A stretch of DNA of 64,000 nucleotides from Bacteroidales bacterium. Its GTDB lineage: Bacteria; Bacteroidota; Bacteroidia; Bacteroidales; FEN-979. The stretch's first letter is position 1. Each line of letters starts with the position of its first letter. Of the stretch, positions 12,804 to 22,234 are shown piece by piece. The notes under the pieces are model-generated. The model was not told where the DNA came from. It ran no database searches and saw only the letters and a program-made list of their open reading frames with translations. Location of the stretch: contig JAUXWT010000044.1 of assembly GCA_030681475.1 (NCBI GenBank), positions 45,379-109,378 of the forward strand. Reading direction: 5' to 3'. A program made the translations under genes and the position numbers.

Positions 12804-13703
12804 TTAAAAAAGCGGCTTATCTTTTTTGCTGAGCCGTTTGATCATGATCAGCTCGTATACGGCGTAAACGTAATGCGCCCACACCCCAACCAGCATAATA
12901 ATTAGAGTGATAATCATCCAGAGCGGAGCGATCGGCGTCCAAAGCTCCCTTGACGGGACTTCGGCTTGATAATATTGCTTATGTACGCCCCAGTTGATCA
13001 TGTTCTGGTCACGTACAAAGCCAAATTGATCATGTTCTTCGATTTGAGCCACCACCATCAGATTTCCCAGGGTGTCGCCTACTATGTTTTTTGGAAATTC
13101 GAGGGTTCCTGTCCCGTTTTCATCGAGGTCGATCTCTCCAATTTTCAACAAACTGAACAACCTGGGAGTATAGATAATCATATTTTCAGAGGGGATAGGC
13201 ACCGTTTCGCCTTTTTCATTTTCCTGAGTTGCAGTCACCTTCAGGATACGGATTGAATCTTCAATACTGAAGGAGAGCCGGATTTTCGCCGGTTTGGCAG
13301 AAATGGATGCTTCTGCCTCCAGGTACTTAACGTTGCCTGTATAATTTGACGTATAGGCAACCATGCCATCTTTATCGGCCGGCAATCCGGCGGCGGTAAT
13401 TTGATAAACGGCCTTGCCCTCCTGATCGGTTTTCGACTGGCCTAACACCTTGCTGATGGATCCATTGGAAGCAGTAAATTCAATCGATGCATTTTCAAGA
13501 CCAAAGATAATATCCCCTTTTCTAATACGCAGGGTTGCCGTTAAAATGACCGTGTCAGAATTACACAGGTAATTCAGCGTCATCTTTGTTTCAGCAAGTG
13601 TATTCGTGGAGTCTGTATTGTCTTCGGCAAATGAAGTCAATGGCTGAAACGCCAGGGAAATCATGGTGACAAGGAATATGATAAACGTGAGAACTCTTTT
13701 CAT
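12804..13703 (-). CDS. Exported membrane-anchored protein with Ig/Big-like region, part of the redox cluster
   Basis: N-terminal signal peptide, beta-rich middle, C-terminal TM (LWMIITLIIMLVGVWAHYVYAVYEL). Confidence 0.6.
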   Translation of the reverse strand: MKRVLTFIIFLVTMISLAFQPLTSFAEDNTDSTNTLAETKMTLNYLCNSDTVILTATLRIRKGDIIFGLENASIEFTASNGSISKVLGQSKTDQEGKAVYQITAAGLPADKDGMVAYTSNYTGNVKYLEAEASISAKPAKIRLSFSIEDSIRILKVTATQENEKGETVPIPSENMIIYTPRLFSLLKIGEIDLDENGTGTLEFPKNIVGDTLGNLMVVAQIEEHDQFGFVRDQNMINWGVHKQYYQAEVPSRELWTPIAPLWMIITLIIMLVGVWAHYVYAVYELIMIKRLSKKDKPLF

Positions 13704-13733
13704 AAGGATAAATTGAGTAATTCCGGTGAATAA

Positions 13734-15047
13734 TCAGACTAAAACATCTTCTTTTTTCTCTTCTACCTGTAATCCATCGACAGGAATGATGGTTACAAAC
13801 TTCGATGCCAGCGTAAAGAGAAGGCAGAATACGGCGACCCCCGCCGCGGTGAGACTCCATTCGACCCAGGTGGCTGAATAATTCAGCCATTCAGCGCGTG
13901 ATTCCTGGATGGGAAGGTAAGGAGATTCAAGGGTGGGAACTACGATGATATAGCGGTTGAGCCAAAGCGCGAGGACAACGATAACCGCGGTAATGGTGAT
14001 GTTCGTAATGGTCCTGAGTTTGGCTATGCCTACAACCAGAAGCGGTAAAAGCACTCCTACGTAATTTGAAAAGAGGAATTCCCAGTAAAATTCTTTAAAG
14101 AGCAACTGGATCAGCAATTCATCGTTTTTTTCGGACCCATACCATTTGGTAAGATAATCGCTGAATGTAAAGTAGCCGAAAAAGGCGGCAAGGACAAGCA
14201 TGATAACGCCAACGGCAACAAAATGTTTTTTGGTAATATATGCTTCGAGATGGTAAACCCTTCTGAAAACCCACATACATACAATAAGCACTGCACTTCC
14301 TGAATATACGGCCGCAATAACGAAATAGGGGCCGAAGATGGTGCTGTGCCAGCCAGGTTGCAGGGTAACGCTGAAAATCCAGGCCAGTACCGAGTAAACG
14401 ATGATGGCAATGGCTATAACCATGGCGGCCATGATGTCGGTGGCCCTGTTTAACCGTTTTTGTTGTTCCGGGGTTCCGGTATATCCAAGAGAAAGTACGT
14501 TATACAATTTTTTTCTCCAATTCGGAAGCTGAAGCAGTTCATAATCCCGCAGCCTGGCAATGTCGCGTAAAACGGACAGATAAAGAAAGATAAAACAGCC
14601 GAAGATGTCCGTGGAAATGGCAATGACGTCCCAGGTGATTGGTGATTGTATTCTTCCGAAAATAACCAGGTAGTGCAGTTTGTCAAGCCTGCCGATGCAA
14701 AGCAGGATAAAGCAAGGTCCGATCAAAAGAGCGATAATGGTGATGAATTCGGCCATGCGTATAACGGGTTTACGCCATGCGGTTTTAAAAAGGTGCAGCG
14801 TACCCGAAATAAGCGCACCCGCATAGCTTATCCCCATAAAGAAGATGAAATTCACGATATAAACACCCCAAACCACATTGTCACGCATACCGGTAACTTC
14901 GTGTCCCAGATAGACTTGCTGAAGGAATGCGTAAAAACCTATTCCGATTACGACAAGTAAAAAAACAATCCAGACATATCCCTGAATGGAAGTCCGTTCG
15001 AGTTGTGGGGCAAAAACCTGCAGTGGATCTTTATTTTGCAATTCCAT
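13734..15047 (-). CDS. NrfD/PsrC-family quinone-interacting integral membrane subunit
   Basis: 437 aa, about 10 TM; GVYIVNFIFFMGISYAGALISGTLHLF; directly follows the ferredoxin-like gene, as in PsrBC/NrfCD pairs. Confidence 0.88.
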   Translation of the reverse strand: MELQNKDPLQVFAPQLERTSIQGYVWIVFLLVVIGIGFYAFLQQVYLGHEVTGMRDNVVWGVYIVNFIFFMGISYAGALISGTLHLFKTAWRKPVIRMAEFITIIALLIGPCFILLCIGRLDKLHYLVIFGRIQSPITWDVIAISTDIFGCFIFLYLSVLRDIARLRDYELLQLPNWRKKLYNVLSLGYTGTPEQQKRLNRATDIMAAMVIAIAIIVYSVLAWIFSVTLQPGWHSTIFGPYFVIAAVYSGSAVLIVCMWVFRRVYHLEAYITKKHFVAVGVIMLVLAAFFGYFTFSDYLTKWYGSEKNDELLIQLLFKEFYWEFLFSNYVGVLLPLLVVGIAKLRTITNITITAVIVVLALWLNRYIIVVPTLESPYLPIQESRAEWLNYSATWVEWSLTAAGVAVFCLLFTLASKFVTIIPVDGLQVEEKKEDVLV

Positions 15048-15049
15048 GG

Positions 15050-16018
15050 TTACGGTTTATTTTTTATACTGTATGGGGTTTCCTTGTAACGATCAATGAT
15101 CTCCTGGTTCATGTCGGCGAACCCACTCTCAACTTCAAATTGGCGGTCAACGGGAGGCAGGTAATATACGCATGGACGGGTCCCGAGTACTTCAAGGTAC
15201 CTGTATCCGGCACGGTCATGGATGAGCTGACTGAACTGATGGGTTTCAGTGCCGTTTGTTACGGTATCCTCGTCAACATCTCCAAAATAGATCACACCCA
15301 TCGGACAGGCAGAAGCGCAATAGGGGATTTTACCGACCCTGACAAGATCAGGGCAGAAATCACATTTTGAAACAGTGCCCTCTTTTCCCGGGCTGCTTGC
15401 TTCGGGCGAATAAGGTTCTTTATCTTCATCAAATTCAGGGTAATGCTTCCATGCAAAAACGCGGGTCGAGTAAGGGCATCCAGTCATGCAAAACTTGCAA
15501 CCGATGCAGCGCTCATTGTCAATCAGCACAATACCGTCTGTACGTTTATAGGTAGCTCCAACCGGACATACGCTGACGCACAACGGGTTATCGCAATGGA
15601 AGCAGGGTTTCGGGAACCAGTAAGGAGCTGTTTTTTCAGAATCCTGCAACAGATATACTTTTATGAATTCCTGGCTATGCGGGAGGTGATGACCTTTTTG
15701 ACAGGCTTCAACGCACTTCCTGGCATTTTTACACTTGCCAAGATCAATGACCATTACAAACTTACGCCCTGGAATTCCTTTGAGGGACTCAGTGCGCGAA
15801 ACACGGGGTAACTTCAGCAGCCCCTGATCCACTTCCATGATCTCCCCGTCGGTGGTAAGGACTTTTACCTTTTCTCCGGTTTCTGTGGCCGTCGCGTCAA
15901 TGTATGCCGTGACCAGACCGCTTCCGATGGCCACACCGGCACCGGCAATGAGCCCTTTTTTCAGGAACTGGCGACGTGAGTTTTTCGGATGCTTATTTAC
16001 TTCTTCTTTCACGTTCAT
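15050..16018 (-). CDS. Tat-exported 4Fe-4S dicluster protein (NrfC/PsrB/HybA-like)
   Basis: SRRQFLKKGLIAGAG twin-arginine signal; cysteine clusters CFHCDNPLCVSVCPVG, CIGCKFCMTGCPYS, CDFC...CASACPMG. Confidence 0.92.
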   Translation of the reverse strand: MNVKEEVNKHPKNSRRQFLKKGLIAGAGVAIGSGLVTAYIDATATETGEKVKVLTTDGEIMEVDQGLLKLPRVSRTESLKGIPGRKFVMVIDLGKCKNARKCVEACQKGHHLPHSQEFIKVYLLQDSEKTAPYWFPKPCFHCDNPLCVSVCPVGATYKRTDGIVLIDNERCIGCKFCMTGCPYSTRVFAWKHYPEFDEDKEPYSPEASSPGKEGTVSKCDFCPDLVRVGKIPYCASACPMGVIYFGDVDEDTVTNGTETHQFSQLIHDRAGYRYLEVLGTRPCVYYLPPVDRQFEVESGFADMNQEIIDRYKETPYSIKNKP

Positions 16019-16023
16019 TAATT

Positions 16024-21335: not shown

Positions 21336-21390
21336 TCGAAGTTTATGATGAGGCGTGTTAATTAGTCGGTGAGATTTGTTAATATAATAA

Positions 21391-21404
21391 CTGATATATC
21401 TCAA
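21391..21404. promoter_or_regulatory. Degenerate FNR-like box CTGATATATCTCAA
   Basis: TTGAT-N4-ATCAA with two mismatches (one in each half); centre is 21 bp from the perfect box. Confidence 0.5.
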
Positions 21405-21411
21405 GTCCTCG

Positions 21412-21425
21412 TTGATATATATCAA
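21412..21425. promoter_or_regulatory. Perfect FNR/CRP-family box TTGATATATATCAA
   Basis: Exact TTGAT-N4-ATCAA palindrome in the intergenic region between a Crp/Fnr gene and a cytochrome gene. Confidence 0.75.
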
Positions 21426-21514
21426 TTCCTAAATAAATATATGAATCCGGGATGTTTTTTTTAAACGGTCAGATCAATGAAAAAAGTCAGCAAGCCGACA
21501 TTGTTATTCTTTTA

Positions 21515-22234
21515 TCAGCCGGTTTCGCTAATCTGGCGGAGAAGTTTTGAATTCAGGACCTCCATACTGTTGCTGTTGATTGTGAGGATCCCTTCTTCTT
21601 TAAATTCTTTTAAAATCCTGATCGCACTTTCTTTCGACATGCCTGAAAGGTCGGCCAGGTCCTGCCGTGAAATGGTCATCTCAAATGGATTCTTGCAGTA
21701 TATTTTGTCGCAAAGATAAAAGATCACATCGGCGATCCGCCCGTGCATCTGTTTTTGGGTAAGGCTGATCACCTGGTCAAAATTGAATATGGACTGAAGG
21801 GAGATACGTTTGATAAATTCCTCGGCAAAATCAGGGTTTTCACGGATCAGTTTTTTAAAAACGGTCACATCGACAAGACAGGCGGTACAATCTTCAACGG
21901 CAGCGGCAGAATAGTAGTGACGGTTATCAACATAAATGCCGGGGCCGAAGATATAGTCGACCGGTTTAATCAGGGCAAGGATCAGGTTTTTACCGTATCC
22001 CTCAATATAGATCTTGGCAAGGCCGGAAGTGACGCAAACAAAATAGGGCGATGGCGTTCCTTGTTTGAACATGATTTCACCCGCCTTATAGCTAACCTGG
22101 AACCTGCTGCTGTTGATCAATTCGATTTCAAGCGGACTTAAATGTTCAAAGATGGATGATTTGCAATTGCAGTCGGCACAATTTGAAGAATGATGATTTT
22201 TATTGACCATGGGATAGGGCTGCCAGTGCCTCAA
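21515..22234 (-). CDS. Crp/Fnr-family transcriptional regulator
   Basis: cNMP-like fold (FKQGTPSPYFVCVTSGLAKIYIEG), HTH (TISRQDLADLSGMSKESAIRILKEFKEEGIL), N-terminal Cys cluster SNCADCNCKS. Start may be MVNKNHH. Confidence 0.92.
   Translation of the reverse strand: MRHWQPYPMVNKNHHSSNCADCNCKSSIFEHLSPLEIELINSSRFQVSYKAGEIMFKQGTPSPYFVCVTSGLAKIYIEGYGKNLILALIKPVDYIFGPGIYVDNRHYYSAAAVEDCTACLVDVTVFKKLIRENPDFAEEFIKRISLQSIFNFDQVISLTQKQMHGRIADVIFYLCDKIYCKNPFEMTISRQDLADLSGMSKESAIRILKEFKEEGILTINSNSMEVLNSKLLRQISETG

What the first reader, a model, noticed from the sequence alone, without database searches (positions are those of the whole stretch)
12804..22234. Candidate uncharacterised transmembrane electron conduit: NrfD/FeS/cyt b/multiheme module with DUF5777 barrel and collagen-like multiheme lipoprotein
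Seen: one strand carries a Crp/Fnr regulator, a multiheme lipoprotein, a cytochrome lipoprotein, a DUF5777-like beta-barrel, a monoheme cytochrome, a 7-heme membrane cytochrome, a b-type cytochrome, a Tat-exported 4Fe-4S protein, an NrfD/PsrC protein and an exported anchored protein. No molybdopterin, nitrite reductase or hydrogenase catalytic subunit is present. Established: NrfD/PsrC plus 4Fe-4S plus multiheme c modules (Qrc, Hmc, Tmc, Act complexes) exchange electrons with the quinone pool. Inference: quinone-linked inner-membrane module, periplasmic carriers, then barrel plus lipoprotein cytochrome, analogous to a porin-cytochrome conduit but with different parts. The terminal acceptor or donor is unknown.
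Basis: partly seen in the sequence, partly recalled or inferred. Interest (0 to 1): 0.8.

Follow-up and report, generated by a model that had tools for sequence, protein, structure and literature searches.

The report
Bacteroidales trans-envelope respiratory electron chain
A conserved set of about ten genes in uncultured lake and sediment Bacteroidales looks like a wire that carries respiratory electrons from the inner membrane to the cell surface, using a different set of parts from the known metal-respiring bacteria.

Summary
Ten genes (J to A, 22234-12804, minus strand) are present as described. A riboflavin kinase (12322-12777) follows, and an FNR-type operator (21412-21425) lies in front of the cytochrome genes. 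Gene order is conserved in 80 named Bacteroidales loci whose flanking genes differ. The FNR box recurs in 26 of 41 orthologous gaps (0.1 expected after shuffling).

New evidence favours extracellular electron transfer. The six-heme lipoprotein's best match among solved structures is OcwA, a cell-surface terminal reductase. ImcH-type quinol oxidases lie beside the module in about ten loci, and one is encoded elsewhere in this genome. E+D resemble a split CbcL. No catalytic reductase co-occurs consistently.

One part of the first interpretation weakens. The DUF5777 barrel is predicted to have only 12 strands, too small to sheath a multiheme protein, and the family is near-universal in Bacteroidia (261/296). 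It is commonly paired with a monoheme lipoprotein. The G-H pair is therefore a generic part recruited here, and how electrons cross the outer membrane is unknown.

Best reading: a new variant of a known kind, a menaquinol-to-surface electron conduit. Confidence is about 0.6. Electron uptake and a multiheme reductase for a soluble acceptor are not excluded.

The parts
21515..22234 (-). J: Crp/Fnr-family regulator; Cys19, Cys22 and Cys119 conserved in 40/40 orthologs (FNR-like)
21412..21425 (.). FNR-type operator TTGATATATATCAA between J and I
   Evidence: only match in the window; same box in 26/41 orthologous regions, 0.1 expected after shuffling
19897..21261 (-). I: exported six-heme lipoprotein with collagen-like linker; candidate surface terminal reductase
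   Evidence: lipobox then GPQG repeats; profile's best PDB hit is OcwA at 1e-10; six extra invariant His in the ortholog group
19362..19766 (-). H: monoheme cytochrome lipoprotein, partner of the DUF5777 barrel
   Evidence: adjacent to G in 61/80 loci
18249..19331 (-). G: DUF5777 outer-membrane beta-barrel, 12 strands predicted
   Evidence: PF19089 210 bits; AlphaFold pLDDT 81.6; PDB fold hits FapF, OmpG, NanC, FadL
17790..18206 (-). F: periplasmic class-I monoheme cytochrome c (CXXCH and invariant Met113)
16658..17680 (-). E: seven-heme cytochrome anchored by N- and C-terminal helices; 7 CX2CH and 7 further invariant His
16024..16683 (-). D: cytochrome b561-type subunit with four invariant His (two b hemes)
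   Evidence: PF01292, PhsC-like
15050..16018 (-). C: Tat-exported Fe-S subunit, DsrO/NrfC type
   Evidence: DsrO model 166.8 bits, below its cut-off of 200; conserved Cys
13734..15047 (-). B: NrfD/PsrC-type quinol-oxidising membrane subunit
   Evidence: PF03916 107.8 bits; best NCBIfam DsrP
12804..13703 (-). A: periplasmic Ig-like domain with C-terminal membrane anchor; subunit of NrfD complexes
   Evidence: fused to NrfD in paralogs and to a cytochrome c in the oxidase cluster
12322..12777 (-). stand-alone riboflavin kinase immediately downstream of A
   Evidence: PF01687 142.9 bits; same place in 28 loci of the clade

Best explanation
The cluster encodes an anaerobically induced respiratory chain that moves electrons from menaquinol to the cell surface. 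NrfD (B) with the Fe-S protein (C), the anchored subunit A, and the seven-heme/cytochrome b pair (E, D) oxidise quinol at the inner membrane. Monoheme cytochrome F carries electrons across the periplasm. The monoheme lipoprotein H with the DUF5777 barrel G forms the outer-membrane station. The six-heme lipoprotein I is the surface terminal reductase, and passes electrons to an extracellular or large acceptor such as Fe(III)/Mn(IV) oxide, humic substances or a partner cell. Shown here: gene content, conserved order, heme-ligand conservation, FNR box, relation of I to OcwA, ImcH neighbours, A as a NrfD-complex subunit (by gene fusion). Inferred: surface location of I and H, electron order and direction, and the acceptor.
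For: Order conserved in 80 Bacteroidales loci with differing flanks. I profile hits OcwA (6i5b, 1e-10), the cell-surface terminal reductase of Thermincola (PMC6703420). I has six extra invariant His for its six hemes, and E seven for seven, as expected for electron transfer rather than catalysis. ImcH-type proteins, which meet the published criteria (about 500 aa, three TM helices, CX3CH plus six CX2CH; PMC6295460), lie next to the module in about ten loci, and one is in this genome at C111. ImcH is found in 24/28 genomes with the module against 10/33 without. In another family of the same phylum, I, E, D and ImcH homologs form one operon, with a single-heme barrel-like protein in the position of H+G. 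A second NrfD/Fe-S set with an F-A fusion sits beside aa3-oxidase genes, so this set probably feeds cytochrome c. FNR box. Source MAGs are largely from stratified lakes, including Lake Pavin, and the Black Sea.
Against: F is a class-I His/Met cytochrome, usually of higher potential than bis-His surface cytochromes, which fits outward flow to low-potential minerals poorly. The 12-strand barrel is too narrow to sheath a multiheme protein. DUF5777 occurs in 261/296 Bacteroidia, most of which lack the module, so the barrel is not specific to EET. The model of I is weak (pLDDT 65.6; no PDB fold hit with E <= 0.001). No cultured organism, expression or localisation data are available. Riboflavin kinase conservation may be plain chromosomal context.
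Confidence: 0.6

Rival explanations
1. I (and its second copy in relatives) is a multiheme reductase of the NrfA/OTR/MccA superfamily acting on a soluble acceptor such as nitrite, hydroxylamine, tetrathionate or sulfite, fed by the NrfD module as in NrfABCD or MccABCD.
For: The I profile also hits NrfA and octaheme nitrite reductases (1.7e-8 to 2e-6), and the best folds are NrfA-like. One ortholog is named c552 in NCBI. The second copy (I2) in relatives has only four invariant extra His for six hemes. OcwA itself reduces nitrite slowly (PMC6703420).
Against: No CXXCK heme. The window protein's ortholog group has one spare invariant His per heme. Its score against PF02335 was not reported even at E 0.01. 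Pairing with an outer-membrane barrel and two lipoproteins is not seen in Nrf or Mcc operons (my knowledge).
Confidence: 0.2
2. The same chain runs inward: surface cytochrome I takes electrons from Fe(II), reduced humics or a partner cell and delivers them through H and F to oxidase or nitrate reductase, with E-D-C-B reducing quinone.
For: F is a class-I His/Met cytochrome; H carries a single heme, as Cyc2 does. The genome encodes Nar and aa3-oxidase clusters. CbcL-type proteins occur in both oxidisers and reducers (PMC6295460).
Against: ImcH homologs have so far been found only in Fe(III) reducers (PMC6295460), and they sit beside the module. NrfD/Fe-S sets normally oxidise quinol. FNR control suggests anaerobic induction.
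Confidence: 0.12
3. The cluster is only a quinol:cytochrome c branch of ordinary respiration; H, G and I serve another envelope role and do not conduct electrons across the outer membrane.
For: An A/B/C/F-type set is reused with aa3 oxidase in this genome. H-G pairs are widespread in Bacteroidia outside any such module.
Against: I, H and G stay linked to E-D-C-B-A across families. I resembles a known surface reductase. No oxidase gene is in the cluster.
Confidence: 0.08

Closest known systems
ImcH and CbcL inner-membrane quinol oxidases of Geobacter (PMC6295460)
   Same: E+D join a multiheme c-type part with a two-heme-b cytochrome as CbcL does; genuine ImcH-type genes lie next to the module in about ten loci
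   Different: E and D are separate proteins and are joined by NrfD/Fe-S subunits and A; no ImcH gene in the window cluster itself
OcwA, Thermincola surface terminal reductase (6i5b)
   Same: best PDB match of I by profile (1e-10); shared C-terminal helical motif SxGxHN; NrfA-like superfamily
   Different: I has six hemes, not nine, and is a lipoprotein of a Gram-negative cell; every heme has a candidate distal His
Porin-cytochrome conduits (MtrCAB, OmbB-OmaB-OmcB)
   Same: overall logic: quinol oxidase, periplasmic carrier, barrel plus surface multiheme lipoprotein
   Different: no MtrB/PioB barrel, no periplasmic multiheme plug; small DUF5777 barrel with a single-heme lipoprotein
DsrMKJOP, Qrc and alternative complex III
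   Same: NrfD plus Tat Fe-S subunit plus membrane-anchored multiheme cytochrome; C and B score best to DsrO and DsrP
   Different: below the DsrO/DsrP and Qrc cut-offs; no DsrK, no QrcB or ActB molybdopterin-like domain
Cyc2 fused cytochrome-porin (PMC8406198)
   Same: one c heme associated with an outer-membrane barrel; a single-heme barrel-like protein stands in the H+G position in a relative (L146)
   Different: two genes rather than one; 12 predicted strands; no detectable homology between DUF5777 and the L146 protein

Membership tests
MtrCAB-type porin-cytochrome complex | large MtrB/PioB barrel (PF11854) | tested here: not met
   barrel is PF19089, 12 strands; PF11854 over cut-off in 0/61 genomes including this one
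MtrCAB-type porin-cytochrome complex | periplasmic multiheme cytochrome threaded through the barrel | tested here: not met
   the genes next to the barrel encode single-heme cytochromes; E is membrane-anchored at both ends
MtrCAB-type porin-cytochrome complex | surface-exposed multiheme lipoprotein | tested here: inconclusive
   I has a lipobox and a weak MtrC-MtrF domain match (25.6 bits, cut-off 30; 35.3 in the L146 homolog); location untested
ImcH quinol oxidase | about 500 aa, three N-terminal TM helices, one CX3CH and six CX2CH | tested here: met
   for the neighbouring genes in L063, L068, L073 and others (TM helices computed for L073) and the 74% identical copy at G000:C111; not for any gene of the window cluster
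CbcL | multiheme c domain plus HydC/FdnI-type di-heme b domain | tested here: met
   E has 7 hemes, D four invariant His
CbcL | both domains in one polypeptide | tested here: not met
   separate overlapping genes 16658-17755 and 16024-16683
DsrMKJOP | DsrO and DsrP above model cut-off | tested here: not met
   DsrO 166.8 (cut-off 200), DsrP 85.6 (cut-off 350)
NrfABCD nitrite reductase | NrfA catalytic subunit in the operon | tested here: not met
   no PF02335 hit for I; NrfA elsewhere in the genome, 10/28 genomes with the module
OcwA-like surface reductase | sequence relation and NrfA-type C-terminal helices | tested here: met
   profile hit 1e-10; the structural comparison alone is weak
OcwA-like surface reductase | reduces extracellular acceptors | not testable with these tools
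   needs protein or mutants
Cyc2 | single polypeptide with N-terminal heme and porin barrel | tested here: not met
   H and G are separate genes; 12 strands predicted for G

The most novel reading that the evidence does not exclude
The DUF5777 barrel plus its single-heme lipoprotein is a previously undescribed kind of outer-membrane electron-transfer pair, present across nearly all Bacteroidia and wired here into an extracellular respiratory chain. Electrons would pass through or around a 12-strand barrel rather than through a multiheme plug.
Probability: 0.22. Interest if true: 0.85.

Novelty: new variant of a known kind. Interest (0 to 1): 0.62.

Why it matters
Bacteroidales are abundant in stratified lakes and sediments and are usually seen as fermenters. 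A conserved, FNR-boxed surface-directed respiratory chain would make many of them candidate metal, humic or interspecies electron respirers. It would also give a searchable gene set (I-H-G-F-E-D-C-B-A) for testing that, and it puts the near-universal, uncharacterised DUF5777 barrel next to a cytochrome partner, a testable first clue to its role. I found no paper naming DUF5777 in the library. He et al. 2019 (PMC6344600) reported unnamed novel porin-cytochrome candidates in Bacteroidetes of a humic bog, so EET in the phylum has been suspected, but I could not match their genes to these.

Tried and rejected
Barrel as an MtrB-like sheath: rejected for size and family. Homology between DUF5777 and the single-heme protein of L146: none detected. 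Obligate catalytic partner: NrfA and molybdoenzymes do not track the module. Riboflavin kinase as an EET-specific gene: possible, but the neighbouring genes downstream are also conserved in the same clade, so its linkage is not independent evidence. Literature on DUF5777: none. Viral fold library for the barrel: uninformative small phage barrels.
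Full report
What is there. Genes B to H are tightly spaced and D overlaps E. A riboflavin kinase follows 26 bases after A. No catalytic reductase gene lies in the cluster.

Conservation. A scan of one genome per species returned 80 loci, the best kept of 150 relatives. 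Gene neighbours were recomputed from the DNA: C-B in 79, B-A in 74, D-C in 68, E-D in 67, H-G in 61 loci, many on short contigs. Flanking genes differ between clades (L060, L072, L090 and others), so the order is held by selection rather than by recent common descent alone. Phylum-wide, proteins related to E at E <= 1e-30 appear in only 9 of 398 genomes, so the module is clade-restricted. Most source MAGs are from stratified lakes, including Lake Pavin, and the Black Sea.

Regulation. The J-I gap holds TTGATATATATCAA (21412-21425), the only such site in the window (0.24 expected). The same box occurs in 26 of 41 orthologous gaps against 0.1 after shuffling (the shuffle keeps base composition only, and related genomes are not independent). 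J keeps Cys19, Cys22 and Cys119 in 40/40 orthologs. This points to FNR-type, hence probably anaerobic, control; that J itself binds the box is inferred.

Inner membrane. C and B score best against DsrO and DsrP but below cut-off. C has three four-Cys cluster sites and a fourth with three Cys and a conserved His. D has four invariant His, fitting two b hemes, and E has seven CX2CH plus seven further invariant His. E+D thus resemble CbcL cut in two (CbcL features from PMC6295460). A is fused to the C-terminus of NrfD in a paralogous 744-residue protein of this genome and of a relative, and its C-terminal half is fused to an F-like cytochrome in a cluster beside aa3-oxidase genes. So A, B, C and F behave as one quinol:cytochrome c oxidoreductase set that this organism also uses with an oxidase.

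Outer membrane. The G model (pLDDT 81.6) is a 12-strand barrel; its nearest PDB folds are FapF, OmpG, NanC and FadL at modest scores. PF19089 is in 261 of 296 Bacteroidia genomes, and a monoheme cytochrome lipoprotein lies beside it in at least 16 of 30 sampled loci with short flanks (the sample is the 30 best-scoring, not random). This genome has such a pair elsewhere, with YceI. The G-H pair is therefore an old Bacteroidia unit recruited here. Its size rules out MtrB-style sheathing of a multiheme protein, and MtrB/PioB is absent from all 61 genomes.

The six-heme lipoprotein. A profile of 30 relatives matches OcwA (6i5b) at 1e-10, then NrfA and octaheme nitrite reductases. OcwA is a cell-surface terminal reductase with an NrfA-like C-terminal helix bundle (PMC6703420). 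The window protein's group has six extra invariant His for six hemes, arguing for electron transfer; a second copy found in relatives has four, so a catalytic role for that copy stays open. The structure model of I is weak and its fold hits are not significant on their own.

Links to known EET. Genes meeting the published ImcH criteria lie beside the module in L054, L055 (broken), L063 (two), L068, L073, L075, L077, L080, L101 and L105. This genome has one at C111. ImcH is in 24 of 28 genomes with the module and 10 of 33 without; these genomes are related, so the counts are not independent. In a distant family of the same phylum (L146) one operon joins an I homolog over the Pfam MtrC/MtrF cut-off, a 399-residue protein with one N-terminal CXXCH that reads as a beta-barrel (no Pfam hit; my reading), a Rieske protein, a monoheme protein, a 13-heme E homolog and a D-ImcH fusion.

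NrfA: 10/28 with, 14/33 without. Molybdopterin enzymes: nearly everywhere. Barrel synteny: held. Location of the lipoprotein: untested.

Verdict. Most likely a menaquinol-to-surface electron conduit of a new make-up (0.6). Rivals: soluble multiheme reductase (0.2), electron uptake (0.12), ordinary cytochrome c branch (0.08). The His/Met nature of F is the main point against simple outward flow to minerals.

Noticed in passing
L048, L049, L050, L051, L052: H orthologs: The lone heme motif of H is CXCH (CTCH) in five related genomes, and CX3CH or CX4CH in others. CXCH would be a very unusual heme-attachment site, or marks a heme-free H.
   Followed up: partly
18249-19331 and DUF5777 loci L150-L179: Three histidines (H71, H249, H318) are invariant in module (11/11) and generic (30/30) DUF5777 barrels, on the hydrophobic face by strand alternation; role unexplained.
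   Followed up: partly
12322-12777: Stand-alone riboflavin kinase domain directly downstream of the module; same place in 28 loci of the clade.
   Followed up: partly
G000:C24 (L120) and L091, L093, L095: A second conserved redox cluster: NrfD, Fe-S protein, four-heme lipoprotein and an F-like cytochrome; a DUF2339-like membrane protein lies with them in L120.
   Followed up: no
L057 (SACF01000001.1): Record titled Alphaproteobacteria carries the module nearly identical to the Bacteroidales locus L053; probably a mislabelled MAG.
   Followed up: no
58797-58922: Array of about 16 copies of an 8-base unit (GGGGACAA) read as PCPLVPLS repeats at the start of an ORF; similar tract at G000:C111 near 49.5 kb.
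   Followed up: no
L037, L039, L043, L086: Relatives carry two tandem six-heme lipoproteins (I and a distant I2, about 26-30% identical), possibly with different roles.
   Followed up: partly
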